DNA from: Microbulbifer variabilis
Lineage (GTDB): Bacteria > Pseudomonadota > Gammaproteobacteria > Pseudomonadales > Cellvibrionaceae
NCBI RefSeq assembly: GCF_023716485.1
Contig: NZ_CP092418.1
Coordinates: forward strand, 1,719,001-1,783,000
Direction: 5' to 3'
Length of the DNA stretch: 64,000 bases
Below are positions 45,085-50,664 of the stretch, in pieces. Within the stretch, counting starts at the first letter, position 1. Each line of letters opens with the position of its first letter. Made by a program: the position numbers and the translations under genes. Below the pieces are notes generated by a model. The model had not been told where the DNA came from and did not search any database. It worked only from the letters and a program-made list of their open reading frames with translations.

Positions 45085-45390
45085 CTATTGTTCGGTATTG
45101 AGTCCTTGATCTTGCAGTTCTCGCGCTTGCTTAAGGATTTCAGGCATGGCGCTGTCTTCCACCGATAAGGCATCAATGATGGCTGCCAGGAGATCTGCAG
45201 AAAACATGCATTTGCTCACCTTGCTACGCAGGTTTTCCGTGGTCATTGAAATCCCTCTTTCGGCCAGGGCCTGGGCGAGATCCCCGTAACGCATACCCCG
45301 CAAAGCCATAGATGCGCGCACATAGCGGGCGATAGCCTGTTTGTACGGAGCCAGTGCTTGCTGGTTACTGAGGCTTTGCTTGTGGTCCAT
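45085..45390 (-). CDS. DUF6471-type small regulator-like protein
   Basis: A 101-residue protein from ATG 45390. The core (YKQAIARYVRASMALRGMRY, GDLAQALAERGISMTTENLRSKVSKCMFSADLLAAIIDAL) has the look of a lambda-repressor-type helix-turn-helix and matches DUF6471. A longer frame runs into the divergent promoter and is not used. It is divergent from the PspA-type operon at 45539, and a 7-bp inverted repeat lies between them, so it may regulate that operon. Function not proven. Confidence 0.65.
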   Translation of the reverse strand: MDHKQSLSNQQALAPYKQAIARYVRASMALRGMRYGDLAQALAERGISMTTENLRSKVSKCMFSADLLAAIIDALSVEDSAMPEILKQARELQDQGLNTEQ

Positions 45391-45478: not shown

Positions 45479-45506
45479 TTGACCGCCTTTTTTTTGATGC
45501 TATATT
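45479..45506 (+). promoter_or_regulatory. Sigma70 promoter of the yjfIJ-K channel-KLMC operon
   Basis: TTGACC (45479-45484), 16 bases containing eight consecutive T, then TATATT (45501-45506). It sits 33 bases before the first gene. No sigma54 (-24/-12) element like that of pspA is seen. Confidence 0.7.
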
Positions 45507-45538
45507 TGTGACTAATATTCCACAGCGAGGGAGTCGAG

Positions 45539-45943
45539 ATGACCTGGAACCATGAGAATCTACGCCATTTGGCGGAAAGCCACACCGGATGGGTGGTGGA
45601 ATCTGAGGGAGAGTGCCTCAGTATTTCCAATGACGAAGGAGTCGATGCATTCGTTTATGTCGGTGAGAAGCAAATCGTTGTCGAGAGCATCTTGTTCCCG
45701 GTCAGCCAGGTAGCCGACGTGGTCTCCCTTAATGAGTTGATTCTCCAGACTCATCAACTGGTTCCTCTGACGTCGATCGCCATCACCATGATTGGCGGTG
45801 AGCGTTACTATGTCGCTTTTGGCGCTTTGTCTGTGTCCAGTAAGGACGAAGTGGTAATTGAAGAAGTTGAAACCCTGTTCTCCAATGTGGGTGACTTCCT
45901 GGATTTATATGCTGATCATTTTGAAATGGAGGGTGTAGCATGA
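45539..45943 (+). CDS. yjfI: DUF2170 protein, YjfI-like
   Basis: A 134-residue protein, the same size as E. coli YjfI (133). An acidic protein with a YbjN/type III chaperone-like alpha/beta pattern (SHTGWVVESEGECLSISNDE, VYVGEKQIVVESILFPVSQV). GAGGGAG precedes the ATG. First gene of the operon; its stop overlaps the next start (ATGA). Role unknown. Confidence 0.8.
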   Translation: MTWNHENLRHLAESHTGWVVESEGECLSISNDEGVDAFVYVGEKQIVVESILFPVSQVADVVSLNELILQTHQLVPLTSIAITMIGGERYYVAFGALSVSSKDEVVIEEVETLFSNVGDFLDLYADHFEMEGVA

Positions 45944-46635
45944 GCCTGAGAAAAATTTGGACTGCCTTGAAAGGCGCGGTCAATGAAGGAACTGAAGCCG
46001 TTGCGGACAGCCAGTCTATCCGTATCCTCGATCAAGAACTGCGGGAGGCAAAGGCCGAATTGAAAGCTTGTGATGAGAACCTGACTAAAATCATGGCCAA
46101 GCGCAAGCTGGCAGAAAGTAAGGTAGAGTCTCTAAAAGCCGATATTGAGACTTACAGCAACCACGCAATCAGTGCCAGCGAGAAAGGTGATGATAGCCTG
46201 GCCTTGGAGTGTGCCGAGCGTGTTACTGAGCTGGAAGCTCAACTCGAAACGGAACAGAGCCTCTTAGATGGCTTCATCAACTCTGAGCGTACCCTGAAAG
46301 GGAATATCTCCAAGGCGAAAATTAATGTCCGCCGTATGGAGCAGCAGATTGACCAGATCAAGGCCACCGAATCTGTGCAAAAGGCCCAAGTAGCCGTTTC
46401 CTCCCGCCATATGGGGGCTAACAGCAAAATCAAAACGGCCCTGGACAGCCTTGATCGTATCAAGACCAAGCAACAGGAGCGTGCTGCGGAGCTGGAAGCT
46501 GCTGAAGAGCTGGCAACAGAGGAAAGCGGCTCTGGTCTGGACGCCAAGCTGAAGGCGGCGGGCATTAAGCCCGGAGGCCAGGTCAGCGGCAGCGACAAGC
46601 TGGCCCAGCTACTGGCGAGCCGCCAAAAGGCCTGA
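45940..46635 (+). CDS. yjfJ: PspA/IM30-family protein, YjfJ-like
   Basis: A 231-residue, mainly coiled-coil protein. The N-terminal amphipathic segment MSLRKIWTALKGAVNEGTEAV and the long helical hairpin (residues ~25-180) are those of PspA/Vipp1, which are ESCRT-III-like membrane-remodelling proteins. The C terminus has a Gly/Ser linker and a short conserved motif KLAQLLASRQKA. No PspF, PspB or PspC is nearby, so this is a separate PspA lineage with a different partner set. Confidence 0.9.
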   Translation: MSLRKIWTALKGAVNEGTEAVADSQSIRILDQELREAKAELKACDENLTKIMAKRKLAESKVESLKADIETYSNHAISASEKGDDSLALECAERVTELEAQLETEQSLLDGFINSERTLKGNISKAKINVRRMEQQIDQIKATESVQKAQVAVSSRHMGANSKIKTALDSLDRIKTKQQERAAELEAAEELATEESGSGLDAKLKAAGIKPGGQVSGSDKLAQLLASRQKA

Positions 46636-46639
46636 TCCA

Positions 46640-47713
46640 GTGCTACTTTATCGAGTGCGGCGCCTTCTGGCGTCGCTTTTTGTTAAGGCCAATATACTAA
46701 CCATTCTTGTCGGCGTGCTGGGTTATGTAATGGGGAGTTACCTATTACTCAGTGCTGCAGGGGAGCATGAGATTGTTGACCCCGCCAACTTTATATATTG
46801 GCTGATAGTGACTGCTTCCACAGTAGGCTATGGCGATTTCTCGCCGGTAACGCCCGCAGGTAAAGTGGTTGTGGCAACCTGGGTGATCCCCTTTGGATTG
46901 AGTCTATTCGCTTTGGTGCTTACCAAGGTGGGCTTTGTAATTTCAGAGTTTGTGCATAGAGGAAAGAGAGGGTTGCGCATGACAAACCATGTAAATCACA
47001 CGGTTATAATTGGCTGGAATGGAACGCGAACCCTTCGTTTGATAGAGCTGCTGTTATCGAAAACCAATGGTACAGCAACAGATATCGTGCTTTGTGTCGA
47101 AGCCGATATCGAGAATCCCATGCCGGGTAAAATTGATTTTGTCCGGGTTGAATCCTTTTCCCATATTGAGAGCATGCAGCGCGCCGCACTTGTCGATGCC
47201 GCGCGAATAATTATCGATAATCCCCTGGATGATGTCACGCTCACCACAGCTTTGTTCTGTGACAAACTCAGTCCCAATAGTCATAAAACAGCCTATTTTC
47301 AGGATGAAAATGTCGGTGAGCTATTGCGCTCACACTGCCCGAATATTGAATGCATCCCCTCAGTAGCGGTGGAATTACTGGCTAAATCCTCCCTGGACCC
47401 CGGTTCTGCCAGATTACACAGGCAGCTACTGGATAGCACTTATGGAATGACTCAGTACAGTATTGAGTATCAGGGTGAACGGCCTTTGTTATTTTCTGCT
47501 CTGTTTGATCATTTCAAAAAGAATTTGTCCGCAACCTTGATTGCCGTGCGTCGTCAGGGAATAGTTAAAATTGATGTAAACCCCGCGTTGACCGATGAGG
47601 TGAACAGGGGGGATATGCTCTATTACATTTCTGCTAAGCGGCTTACAGAAAAGCGCTGCTTCGATATAAAAATGAATGAAGGAGAGGGGACAGGTACGTG
47701 TTTACCAAGCTGA
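46640..47713 (+). CDS. Potassium channel with RCK/TrkA-N domain
   Basis: A 357-residue protein. Two transmembrane helices flank the selectivity filter TVGYGDFSP (near residue 62). The cytoplasmic part has an RCK domain (HTVIIGWNGTRTLRLIELLL) where the usual GxGxxG is altered to GWNGTR. It starts at GTG 46640, four bases after yjfJ. E. coli yjfIJKLMC lacks this gene, so it is an insertion relative to that operon. A gated ion channel next to a PspA protein suggests sensing or control of membrane potential (inference). Confidence 0.88.
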   Translation: MLLYRVRRLLASLFVKANILTILVGVLGYVMGSYLLLSAAGEHEIVDPANFIYWLIVTASTVGYGDFSPVTPAGKVVVATWVIPFGLSLFALVLTKVGFVISEFVHRGKRGLRMTNHVNHTVIIGWNGTRTLRLIELLLSKTNGTATDIVLCVEADIENPMPGKIDFVRVESFSHIESMQRAALVDAARIIIDNPLDDVTLTTALFCDKLSPNSHKTAYFQDENVGELLRSHCPNIECIPSVAVELLAKSSLDPGSARLHRQLLDSTYGMTQYSIEYQGERPLLFSALFDHFKKNLSATLIAVRRQGIVKIDVNPALTDEVNRGDMLYYISAKRLTEKRCFDIKMNEGEGTGTCLPS

Positions 47714-48351
47714 TTGACAAACTCAAAGGTAAAGATATTCCAAAGGTGAAAACCCCGGAAATTATGGGATTGCGACTCGGCGCAAGTTTTGAACTGGACC
47801 CATTGGCTATTCGCCTGATACTGGATGAACTCACGATTGAATCCTGTTCTCCAACGCAGATTATCAAAGCCGCCGGAATTGTAGAGCTCGATGGAGCCTG
47901 GGTTTATCGGTTTTATACCGATGACGATGCCTGGCTACAGGTTGTGGCAGAAGGCGGTCAAAGTGATGAGCATGTAGTAGACGTAAAGCTGTTTCACTTT
48001 TACGATACCCTCGATGTCGCCAATCAGCAGGTTTGGGACAGGCTTCTAAAGCAGGAAATCGGTGCGGCTAATTACCAATTGCAGGACCGTAACTATCAGA
48101 GAGTCTGGACTGCTACTGGTGATTATCACAACCCGGTGCATATGGCCGAGAAGACCTATGACGCCGATGGGGACTATTCCCTCACCGACCAATTCACCAT
48201 GCTTTTCGAACGCGATTTGTCCGATCAGCGTACCGAATCCCTGTTCCTTTCAGCGGAAGAGAAAGAGGAGGACGCAGGTTACTTGAGTCGCAGTCTGGTG
48301 ATTAGTACCGGTATAACTTTGACACCATCACAGCTGACTATTCACGGATAA
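47698..48351 (+). CDS. yjfK: DUF2491 protein, YjfK-like
   Basis: A 217-residue soluble protein (E. coli YjfK is 219). The first residues MFTKLIDKLKGKDIPKVKTPE form a helix, and the body has LGASFELDPLAIRLI and FYTDDDAWLQVV. Start at GTG 47698 overlaps the channel gene by 16 bases, so translation is coupled. Role unknown. Confidence 0.83.
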   Translation: MFTKLIDKLKGKDIPKVKTPEIMGLRLGASFELDPLAIRLILDELTIESCSPTQIIKAAGIVELDGAWVYRFYTDDDAWLQVVAEGGQSDEHVVDVKLFHFYDTLDVANQQVWDRLLKQEIGAANYQLQDRNYQRVWTATGDYHNPVHMAEKTYDADGDYSLTDQFTMLFERDLSDQRTESLFLSAEEKEEDAGYLSRSLVISTGITLTPSQLTIHG

Positions 48352-48366
48352 TAAGGAGATGTATTA

Positions 48367-48783
48367 ATGGACCAGCCCTACGATTTGATGACTGGTATCC
48401 TCCATTTTGCGGCCTATTTTGGCCTGTCACTGGTATTTTTAATTGCGTTTAAATTTCTTTATGCACTAGTGACACCCCATGACGAATGGAAGTTGATCCG
48501 TGAAGACAAAAACGCAGCCGCTGCCATTGGATTTGGTGGTGCGGTGCTGGGTTTTGCCATTGCTGTTGGCGGCGCTGCCAGTAACTCTGTTTCCATTATT
48601 GACTTTGCCACTTGGGCAGTGGTTGCTCTAATCGCTCAGCTTATTGCCTTTGCGATTATTCGTTTTGGCTTTATGCCACGTATTGTTGAGCGTATTGAAG
48701 ACGGTGAAGTTAGCGCGGGTATTATGCTGGCAGCTACCACTATTTCTGTTGGTGTCCTCAACGCGGCTTGCATGAGCTATTAA
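48367..48783 (+). CDS. yjfL: DUF350 membrane protein, YjfL-like
   Basis: A 138-residue inner-membrane protein with four predicted helices (about residues 12-30, 52-72, 77-97 and 115-135). DUF350 features include AAAIGFGGAVLGFAIAVGGA. AAGGAG precedes the ATG. It always travels with ATP-grasp or PspA genes in this type of operon. Confidence 0.86.
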   Translation: MDQPYDLMTGILHFAAYFGLSLVFLIAFKFLYALVTPHDEWKLIREDKNAAAAIGFGGAVLGFAIAVGGAASNSVSIIDFATWAVVALIAQLIAFAIIRFGFMPRIVERIEDGEVSAGIMLAATTISVGVLNAACMSY

Positions 48784-48795
48784 GCGGAGGTGAGG

Positions 48796-49419
48796 ATGAA
48801 GCGTAGTAAAAATATTAATCTTGCGCGGATGCGCAAGGGCAGGGGGGCAAGTTTTGTTTTACGCCCCCTGGCTATGGGTATCACCGTGGCTCTGGTGGGC
48901 TGCTCCTCCGATGAAGAGGTTAAGGTGGTGTCCTCTGTCGAGGACTGTGTGAATAATACACAGCTCGATGAAGCCCAATGTGAGGCGGCTTACCAGAAGG
49001 CCCTCGCGGAAGCTGAGCGGACTGGGCCCAAATATGCCAATTTGTCCCAGTGTGAGACGGAGTTCGGTAGTTGTCGCGAGAGTAGCAGCGGTTTTTGGAT
49101 GCCACTGATGACCGGTTTTATGGTCGCCTCCATATTGAATGATAACGACCGGCGCTATCACTCCTACGGTCATTACAACCCGGTATACCGTTATTCTGCC
49201 TCTGGCTCCCGCTATTATGATCGCTTGATGACCGCTGATGGTCAGGTTATCGGCCGCTACGGTAAAAACTCCTATACCGTAGATAAAACTGCGATGGATC
49301 CCAAGCCCAAGGTTACCAAGACGGTTTCACGCGGGGGCTTTGGAGCAGTCGCTTCAGCCAAATCCAACTGGGGTGGTGGACGCTCTAGTAGCAGTCGCTC
49401 CCGAAGCTGGGGGGGGTGA
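48796..49419 (+). CDS. yjfM: DUF1190 lipoprotein-like protein, YjfM-like
   Basis: A 207-residue protein from ATG 48796. A GTG at 48790 overlaps the GGAGG and cannot be the start. A basic N terminus is followed by a hydrophobic segment ending LVGCSS, a probable lipobox. Four further Cys (EDCVNN, AQCEAAY, SQCETEFGSC) and the Ser/Gly/Arg-rich end (GGGRSSSSRSRSWGG) match DUF1190. Envelope location expected. Role unknown. Confidence 0.83.
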   Translation: MKRSKNINLARMRKGRGASFVLRPLAMGITVALVGCSSDEEVKVVSSVEDCVNNTQLDEAQCEAAYQKALAEAERTGPKYANLSQCETEFGSCRESSSGFWMPLMTGFMVASILNDNDRRYHSYGHYNPVYRYSASGSRYYDRLMTADGQVIGRYGKNSYTVDKTAMDPKPKVTKTVSRGGFGAVASAKSNWGGGRSSSSRSRSWGG

Positions 49420-49422
49420 TTG

Positions 49423-50589
49423 GTGCTGAGGTTGCCGATCGGTGAGCGCCCGCGCTGGAAAGAGCGGGCGCAGGAGTTTGGTTTTCATTTTCACACCATG
49501 TATGGGGAGCCATACTGGGATGAAACTGCTTACTATCAGTTCACTTTGGAACAGATAGAGCAGGATATCGAGGACCCTACCGAAGAAATCCACGCAATGT
49601 GCCTGGATGTTGTCGCTAAGGTGCTTGAGGATGAGGCGTTGTTAAGGCGCTTCCGCATACCGGAGCAGCACTGGGATTTTGTCCGCGATTCCTGGAAAAA
49701 TGGTGACCCCAGCCTTTATTCTCGCTTGGATTTTGCCTATTCGGGGCAGGGGCCGGCCAAACTTTATGAGAATAACGCCGACACGCCTACCAGCCTATAT
49801 GAAACGGGATTTTGGCAGTGGCTTTGGTTGCAGGATAATGTAGATAGGCGGGCACTTCCCCTACAGTCTGATCAATTTAACAGCCTGCAGGAAAAGCTGG
49901 TTAATCGCTTTCGCGATGTACAGTTCCTGACCCCTGGTCGAGAACTACATTTTGCCTGTTGCAAAGATACGGTAGAAGACCGCGGTACGGTTCAATATTT
50001 GCAAGATTGTGCCAGTGAAGCCGGCATCACTAATCATTTTGTATTTATCGAAGATATTGGTTGTGATGCGCAGGGAGATTTTACCGATTTAGACGATCAG
50101 GTAATTACCTGGATGTTCAAACTGTACCCTTGGGAGTTTATGTTCCGCGAGGAATTTGGCTCTCTGTTGGGGGGCAATAACGTACGTTGGTTGGAACCAC
50201 CCTGGAAGGCGATATTATCCAATAAAGCACTCCTGCCCATGTTGTGGAAGTTGTTTCCTGGACACCCCAACTTACTACCTTCATTTTTCGAAGATGAGCT
50301 AGATAAAGCTGAGGGCTATTCGGAGCTGGTTAAGAAGCCCATTTTCTCCCGTGAGGGAGCCAATATTTCAGTAGTACGCGGAGAAGATGTGCAATCGCTT
50401 TCGGATGGGCCCTATGGAGAAGAGGGCTTTATCTATCAGGCTATGCATCCACTGCCGAAGTTTGGTCAGAGTTTTACCCTGGTGGGTAGCTGGCTAGTGG
50501 ATGATATGGCTGCGGGTATTTCAATTCGCGAGGATAGTAATCTTATAACTCAGGATATGAGTCGCTACCTCCCGCATATTATCCTTTAA
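49423..50589 (+). CDS. yjfC: Glutathionylspermidine synthase-like ATP-grasp ligase, YjfC-like
   Basis: A 388-residue protein aligned along its length with E. coli YjfC (387). Blocks include [55 protein letters not shown] and [13 protein letters not shown], where ATP-grasp Lys and acidic residues lie. The family condenses glutathione with spermidine or related amines; YjfC itself has no settled substrate. The frame begins right after the yjfM stop; GTG 49423 is taken, TTG 49420 is an alternative. Last gene of the operon, followed by hairpins. Confidence 0.9.
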
Positions 50590-50634: not shown

Positions 50635-50664
50635 GCCACTTTCTTAAAGTAAGTGGCTTTTTTG
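50635..50664 (+). terminator. Terminator of the yjf operon
   Basis: GCCACTT and AAGTGGC around a 9-base loop are followed by TTTTTT. A second, perfect 12-bp hairpin (AATACTTGCCAG/CTGGCAAGTATT, 50590-50623) lies directly before it. Confidence 0.85.

What the first reader, a model, noticed from the sequence alone, without database searches (positions are those of the whole stretch)
45539..50589. PspA - K+ channel - ATP-grasp ligase operon with an inserted RCK channel
Seven tightly spaced, partly overlapping genes encode DUF2170, PspA, a two-helix K+ channel with RCK domain, DUF2491, DUF350, a DUF1190 lipoprotein and a glutathionylspermidine-synthase-like ligase. Six match E. coli yjfIJKLMC, whose function is not established. 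The channel is extra and sits between yjfJ and yjfK with a 16-base coding overlap, so it belongs to the unit. Together they suggest a membrane-stress system in which an ESCRT-III-like protein, an ion channel and a peptide/amine ligase act on the envelope.
Basis: partly seen in the sequence, partly recalled or inferred. Interest (0 to 1): 0.72.

Follow-up and report, generated by a model that had tools for sequence, protein, structure and literature searches.

The report
Envelope-stress operon with potassium channel
This is a known kind of bacterial membrane-stress operon in which the potassium channel is a usual part that E. coli lacks; what looks new is a likely switch at its start and a conserved RNA-hairpin signal that seems to divide it into two halves.

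Summary
The seven genes are present at the stated coordinates with the stated families and the 16-base overlap. The gene set, potassium channel included, is already in print as the "third group" of CesT/Tir-PspA operons (PMC11237479 passages).

Three features I found in none of the searches made: (1) a divergent DUF6471 gene beside 34 of 61 operons with DUF2170, with a palindrome TGTgActTATAagTcACA between them in 32 of those 34, against 2 of 27 operons without it; in the window it starts right after the -10 box. (2) A terminator-like hairpin just after pspA in 23 of 45 channel-bearing loci (0.5 expected), synonymously constrained inside the channel gene in Microbulbifer. (3) A rhomboid-family gene beside 11 of 63 loci.

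Best reading: a DUF6471-repressed, two-tier membrane-stress operon, PspA/chaperone abundant, channel/ligase module scarcer. Repression, cue, channel ligand and ligase product are inferred.

The parts
45085..45390 (-). DUF6471 gene (101 aa from the ATG at 45390), divergent; candidate dedicated regulator
   Evidence: PF20075 1e-16 and 2.4e-17; the only DUF6471 match in the genome; adjacent to 34 of 61 operons with DUF2170, window included
45479..45506 (+). sigma-70-like promoter TTGACC-16-TATATT
   Evidence: 10 of 12 matches (the region as a whole has no more promoter-like sites than shuffles: 8 against 6.9); similar in most other Microbulbifer loci by inspection
45507..45524 (.). palindromic candidate operator TGTGACTAATATTCCACA, starting right after the -10 box
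   Evidence: with 0 mismatches once in the genome, two further sites with 2 mismatches
45539..45943 (+). DUF2170 (YjfI/BacA family, CesT/Tir-like chaperone)
   Evidence: PF09938 3.6e-34; solved relative 8q8o, E 7.8e-17
45940..46635 (+). PspA/YjfJ (ESCRT-III-like)
   Evidence: PF04012 1.3e-41; a second, weaker PspA family match lies elsewhere in the genome
46657..46681 (+). terminator-like hairpin (8-bp stem with one G-T pair, then T5) inside channel codons RRLLAS; candidate attenuator between PspA and the membrane module
46640..47713 (+). two-helix K+ channel with RCK region, filter TVGYGD
   Evidence: PF07885 7e-14; MthK alignment; TxGYGD in 47 of 49 family members aligned
47698..48351 (+). 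DUF2491 (YjfK)
   Evidence: PF10679 3.6e-70
48367..48783 (+). DUF350 (YjfL, multi-helix inner-membrane protein)
   Evidence: PF03994 3.2e-38
48790..49419 (+). DUF1190 lipoprotein (YjfM/YgiB-like; LVGC lipobox seen by eye in the translation)
   Evidence: PF06693 4.7e-44; NF008655 167 bits, under its 223-bit cut-off
49420..50589 (+). ATP-grasp peptide-spermidine-ligase-like enzyme (YgiC/YjfC family)
   Evidence: PF03738 1.4e-156; 7uk8 YgiC 2.2e-159, 7uk6 YjfC 1.7e-133; the only GSP_synth match in the genome
50635..50663 (+). terminator-like hairpin and T6 after the ligase
   Evidence: score 11, just under the threshold of 12 used in the survey

Best explanation
It is a YjfIJ-type membrane-stress operon with two expression tiers. 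Shown by sequence and comparison: a sigma-70-like promoter upstream; a palindrome right after its -10 box next to a divergent DUF6471 gene; genes for a CesT-like chaperone (DUF2170) and PspA first; a terminator-like hairpin; then a membrane/enzyme module of RCK K+ channel, DUF2491, DUF350, DUF1190 lipoprotein and ATP-grasp ligase. Inferred: DUF6471 is the repressor that binds the palindrome and is released by an unknown envelope cue. DUF2170 holds or regulates PspA. The hairpin ends most transcripts, so PspA is made in excess over its membrane partners, as is suggested by the Rho-independent terminator after B. subtilis pspA. The channel lets K+ flow under control of a cytosolic ligand to restore or limit membrane potential while PspA seals the membrane. 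The ligase makes a peptide-polyamine conjugate whose substrate and target here are unknown.
For: Gene content and order conserved. Channel integral: 48 of 63 operons, congruent distances. DUF6471 adjacent to 34 of 61; co-occurrence with DUF2491 in 21 genomes of 244, 3.0 expected. Palindrome in 32 of 34 loci with DUF6471, leave-one-clade-out with free start, against 2 of 27 without, scored with the full motif. Hairpin after pspA in 23 of 45 channel-bearing loci, 0.5 expected; 0 or 1 after each other internal gene; synonymous diversity 0.154 against 0.640 in Microbulbifer. Ten loci with DUF2170-PspA divergent break at the same joint. In B. [quoted passage not shown] YjfC/YgiC ligase activity. 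yjfIJKL raised in heat-evolved E. coli (PMC12492005 passages).
Against: DUF6471 is not shown to have a DNA-binding fold. Of 22 members 7 hit Myb_DNA-bind_4 (best 0.0041) and 1 hits HTH_26 (0.086), all weak; the PDB search gives nothing credible, and no structure prediction ran. Palindrome: L116 has none; L111 missed in the free-start run; in two of 12 hold-outs (f268+, L111) the free search settled on another, lower-scoring palindrome. In family f142 the site lies 109-226 bases upstream of the anchor, nearer DUF6471. 17 of 40 same-strand channel-bearing loci show no hairpin by my criterion, which finds only 2 of 63 after the ligase, so it misses ordinary terminators. 15 of 63 surveyed operons plus E. 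coli have no adjacent channel. The paper cites work that YgiC does not make glutathionylspermidine. No activity tested.
Confidence: 0.6

Rival explanations
1. The channel is a chance or recent insertion into a yjfIJKLMC operon.
For: E. coli yjfIJKLMC has none; 15 of 63 surveyed operons lack an adjacent channel; the family occurs outside the operon in 12 of 30 order genomes that have it, and in 7 of the 10 such places read no other operon gene was labelled within five genes.
Against: Same place in 48 of 63; congruent distances; E. coli joins channel-bearing L092 (99) and L093 (100) on a quick tree; a channel in two pieces in L095.
Confidence: 0.03
2. The RCK channel is gated by the ligase's product: a peptide-polyamine conjugate binds the RCK domain, as glutathione adducts do with KefC (recalled, not tested), so ligase and channel form a chemical-signal circuit.
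For: Ligase and channel share the operon in 48 of 63 loci; L152 keeps channel-DUF350-DUF1190-ligase without PspA, DUF2170 or DUF2491; the RCK loop reads IIGWNGTRT in the window instead of a classic GxGxxG, so its ligand is probably not NAD (inference).
Against: 15 surveyed operons and E. coli keep the ligase without an adjacent channel; in 7 of 10 places outside the operon no ligase was labelled near the channel (ligase elsewhere in those genomes not searched). No binding data.
Confidence: 0.12
3. The hairpin is not an attenuator but a 3' stabiliser or processing site of a DUF2170-pspA mRNA, or a by-product of coding constraint at the channel start.
For: It lies in coding sequence in Microbulbifer; only 6 codons of 14 related loci carry the synonymous test; no RNA data.
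Against: Synonymous positions are constrained (0 of 20000 matched sets as low); different sequences with the same shape in 9 loci outside Microbulbifer. A stabiliser would give the same two-tier output.
Confidence: 0.25
4. DUF6471 is a co-located protein with another role (for example binding the PspA complex), and the palindrome belongs to another regulator.
For: No HTH shown by sequence.
Against: Palindrome tracks the DUF6471 gene (32 of 34 against 2 of 27); related palindromes beside DUF6471 at L139-L141 (L139 and L140 are one genus); a different perfect palindrome at L142.
Confidence: 0.25

Closest known systems
PspA-CesT/Tir 'third group' operon (Ravi et al. 2024, PMC11237479, passages seen)
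   Same: DUF2170-type CesT/Tir, PspA, K+ channel with ligand sensing, DUF2491, DUF350, DUF1190, GSP-synthetase-like ATP-grasp: the same seven parts
   Different: The words DUF6471 and rhomboid do not occur in the main text; operator and hairpin are not in the passages I saw. Figures and supplements not seen.
E. coli yjfIJKLMC
   Same: Six genes, same order; a hairpin also follows yjfJ
   Different: No channel; no DUF6471 in the E. coli control genome and no palindrome (p=0.29); the ligase here is closer to YgiC
P. aeruginosa bacABCDEF operon (PMC10948618, abstract and passages)
   Same: DUF2170-PspA dyad at the head of an operon
   Different: A sigma-54 site is proposed there; sigma-70-like here
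B. subtilis pspA-ydjGHI (PMC8581546, passages)
   Same: PspA gene followed by a Rho-independent terminator and membrane-associated partners
   Different: SPFH/YdjG/YdjH partners instead of channel, DUF350 and ligase; DUF2170 not mentioned in the passages

Membership tests
Ravi 'third group' PspA operon | DUF2170-PspA dyad with ATP-grasp, K+ channel, DUF350, DUF1190, DUF2491 | tested here: met
yjfIJKLMC (E. coli type) | six genes in the order I-J-K-L-M-C | tested here: met
   same order, with the channel between J and K
MthK-type RCK K+ channel | two-helix pore with TxGYGD filter joined to an RCK domain | tested here: met
   by sequence; no structure; the MthK calcium site (recalled) was not tested
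YgiC/YjfC peptide-spermidine ligases | full-length homology to the solved YgiC and YjfC, no amidase domain hit | tested here: met
   (residues 4-388 of 389)
YgiC/YjfC peptide-spermidine ligases | ligase activity on a peptide and spermidine | not testable with these tools
   needs enzyme assay
HTH transcription regulators (DUF6471) | helix-turn-helix fold | tested here: inconclusive
   weak hits only; structure prediction never ran
HTH transcription regulators (DUF6471) | associated palindromic operator | tested here: met
   binding not testable here
bac (sigma-54) operon | -24/-12 promoter | not tested
   no scan was made; a sigma-70-like site was found

The most novel reading that the evidence does not exclude
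DUF6471 is a family of dedicated repressors for bacterial membrane-scaffold operons: the same regulator family, with related palindromes, governs PspA operons and Band_7-NfeD (stomatin-like) operons. The same RCK K+ channel family serves both scaffolds, so ion flux and membrane scaffolding form one regulated response.
Probability: 0.45. Interest if true: 0.68.

Novelty: new member of a known kind. Interest (0 to 1): 0.5.

Why it matters
The yjfIJKL genes rose in heat-evolved E. coli strains and were called uncharacterised there (PMC12492005 passages). That E. coli has a reduced version, that many relatives carry a candidate repressor with a defined site, and that the operon seems cut into two expression tiers would make the system directly testable: remove DUF6471 to switch it on, then ask what PspA, channel and ligase each do.

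Tried and rejected
Channel as insertion: rejected. Channel exclusive to the operon: rejected. At E <= 1e-25 the family is in 30 of 244 order genomes; 21 of these have DUF2491, and in 18 of the 21 the two are neighbours by coordinates. Three operons scored as channel-less (L104, L123, L126) have a channel gene elsewhere in the genome, and L024 has one about 1 kb upstream on the other strand; the other channel-less genomes were not all searched. Polyamine-biosynthesis neighbours: of 24 flank clusters present in 3 or more of the 63 loci clustered, representatives of 10 were scanned with Pfam and none was a polyamine gene; 14 were not scanned. DUF2491 fold by sequence: the PDB profile search gave nothing below 0.058. 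The inverted repeat 45394-45413/45519-45538 was not pursued as the operator: it covers the start regions of the two divergent genes and varies in relatives. Resampling tests ignore relatedness; clade-level counts are given for that reason.

Selection: all surveyed loci were chosen by DUF2491, and 18 by likeness to the window's own DUF2491, which favours close relatives; operons without DUF2491 (L150, L152) are not counted. Rows dropped or set by hand: 2 duplicate loci; L128 (contig end); 7 loci with DUF2491 but without DUF350 plus ligase (L081, L105-L108, L129, L130); L131 had no DUF2491 by my profile; L079, L092, L100, L103 counted as channel-adjacent by coordinates although the strict gap rule missed them because of over-long start calls; L095 counted as lacking (channel in two pieces). 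The motif was trained on 22 of the 34 loci (Microbulbifer thinned to 3, one near-duplicate left out). The tree is a quick one with long-branch warnings.
Full report
WHAT IS THERE. The window is a Microbulbifer genome (the closest locus, 97% identity in DUF2491, is Microbulbifer variabilis SaN7-12). Seven genes on the + strand from 45539 to 50589 encode DUF2170, PspA, a two-helix RCK K+ channel, DUF2491, DUF350, a DUF1190 lipoprotein and a GSP_synth ATP-grasp enzyme. The channel aligns with MthK over pore and RCK region. The ligase aligns full-length with the solved E. coli YgiC (534 bits) and YjfC (449 bits), and less with trypanothione synthetase and GspSA.

ALREADY IN PRINT. Passages of PMC11237479 describe these parts as a third group of CesT/Tir-PspA operons, potassium channel included. 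Pederick et al. 2023 on YgiC/YjfC peptide-spermidine ligase activity is not held; I saw it only as a citation and one sentence in PMC12568646, and as the RefSeq product name of YjfC. PMC12506659 passages cite Sui et al. 2012 (not held) that YgiC does not have glutathionylspermidine synthase activity. PMC12492005 passages report yjfIJKL upregulated in heat-evolved E. coli.

IS THE CHANNEL EXTRA? DUF2491 was found in 8 of 369 class genomes, 29 of 398 phylum genomes and 28 of 244 order genomes, the draws overlapping; 55 regions were fetched and 18 named loci came. One search annotated these 73 loci. With the window added and duplicates removed, 71 distinct loci with DUF2491 remained, 64 of them with DUF350 and ligase. 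Without the truncated L128, 63 operons remain: 48 have the channel directly upstream of DUF2491 (34 of 49 without the 14 Microbulbifer rows), 15 do not. One search's strict gap rule gave 44; four more were added by reading coordinates. On a quick ligase tree of these 63 plus E. coli the channel state changes at least 9 times (7 forced by starred branches). E. coli joins channel-bearing L092 (99) and L093 (100). Counts of changes cannot tell gain from loss, but channel distances follow ligase, DUF2491, PspA and DUF350 distances as closely as those follow each other (Mantel r 0.938-0.953 against 0.925-0.961, 45 loci). I therefore read the channel as old and repeatedly lost or moved; in L095 it is in two pieces.

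TWO MODULES. In ten operon loci DUF2170-PspA are divergent from the rest (L082 and L094-L102, with or without channel), and the break falls between PspA and the channel/DUF2491. Nine of the ten are from the phylum outside the window's class and one (L082) from the same class. L124, L125 and L127 have channel-DUF2491-DUF350-DUF1190-ligase without PspA. Outside the survey, 10 of the 12 genomes with a channel away from DUF2491 were read: L152 has channel-DUF350-DUF1190-ligase, L150 channel-DUF350, L148 a channel right after a stomatin-like and an NfeD-like gene (named by likeness to the pair scanned, not scanned themselves), and seven show no other labelled operon gene within five genes. So the channel's commonest steady partner is the DUF2491/DUF350 module, not PspA.

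A HAIRPIN AT THE SAME JOINT. A hairpin with T-run (window 46657-46681) was flagged. It is present in 14 of 14 Microbulbifer loci (T4 or T5 in 13, TGTTT in L015). Its six codons RRLLAS show synonymous diversity 0.154 against 0.640 in the rest of the gene; 0 of 20000 amino-acid-matched sets were as low. Across 45 channel-bearing loci with PspA, 23 have such a hairpin just after pspA, 0.5 expected by resampling; after DUF2170 0 of 61, channel 0 of 50, DUF2491 0 of 64, DUF350 0 of 64, DUF1190 1 of 64. Nine of the 23 lie outside Microbulbifer, with different sequences. By strand: 23 of 40 same-strand, 0 of 5 divergent. Of 16 channel-less rows 2 have it, one being E. coli between yjfJ and yjfK. A caution: after the ligase the same test finds only 2 of 63, so it misses ordinary terminators; the window's own end hairpin (50635-50663) scores 11, below the threshold of 12. 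In B. [quoted passage not shown]

A CANDIDATE REGULATOR AND ITS SITE. Clustering flanking genes of 63 loci gave one widespread neighbour: a divergent DUF6471 protein. It is next to 34 of 61 operons with DUF2170, window and E. coli counted in the 61. Palindromic motif search on 22 of these upstream regions gave TGTgActTATAagTcACA with log-likelihood 155.9 against 26.1-33.5 in six shuffles. Leaving each clade out: 33 of 34 loci at p<0.05 when started from the full motif, 32 of 34 (10 of 12 clades) with a free start, although in two hold-outs the free search settled on another palindrome. Without DUF6471: 2 of 27 with the full motif. In the window the site is 45507-45524, immediately after the -10 hexamer, which fits a repressor. 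DUF6471 matches once in the genome, and the site occurs once without mismatch. In 244 order genomes DUF6471 is in 26, DUF2491 in 28, both in 21, 3.0 expected; 14 of the 21 are adjacent by coordinates. Of the 12 genomes with DUF6471 away from the operon, 8 were read: it sits beside stomatin-like (Band_7) genes with an NfeD-like gene in L139-L141, L143 and L144 (Band_7 scanned in L139 and L143, NfeD in L139, the rest by likeness), beside DUF2170-PspA-YqiJ-flotillin in L142, and at the end of a gene cluster with TerD in L145 (scanned) and L146 (by likeness). Related palindromes occur at L139-L141 (p 0.004-0.006; L139 and L140 are one genus) and weakly at L143 (0.024), not at L142 and L144-L146; L142 has a different perfect palindrome with 16-base arms, seen by eye. 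No held paper contains the word DUF6471, and the main text of PMC11237479 has neither DUF6471 nor rhomboid. That DUF6471 is an HTH protein is my inference; searches give only weak hits.

MECHANISM. My best account is a DUF6471-repressed membrane-stress operon in two tiers, stated under Best explanation. Steps resting on sequence and comparison: gene content, promoter-like site, palindrome, hairpin, channel integral. Steps inferred: repression, inducing cue, attenuation, K+ role, ligase product and target.

NOVELTY. The operon is a new member of a printed group. The regulator, operator and conserved hairpin are additions that I did not find in the passages and searches named; no search was made for the hairpin by name, and figures, supplements and most subscription papers were not seen.

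Noticed in passing
L022, L023, L024, L077, L085, L086, L088, L089, L103, L115, L121: A rhomboid-family gene (PF01694, scanned for L103; the other 10 by clustering) lies within two genes of the operon, or inside it, in 11 of 63 loci, with a GASG serine motif visible in all 11; possibly a protease acting on a membrane partner.
   Followed up: partly
L142 5920-9926: DUF6471 divergent from DUF2170-PspA-YqiJ-flotillin, with its own perfect palindrome with 16-base arms between them.
   Followed up: partly
L145, L146: Distant DUF6471 proteins at the end of gene clusters with TerD.
   Followed up: no
L092, L093: The channel filter reads GFGD instead of GYGD in the two rows nearest E. coli, possibly drift before loss.
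   Followed up: no
L014 8709-9171: About 460 bases separate DUF1190 and the ligase in this Microbulbifer locus, unlike its relatives.
   Followed up: no
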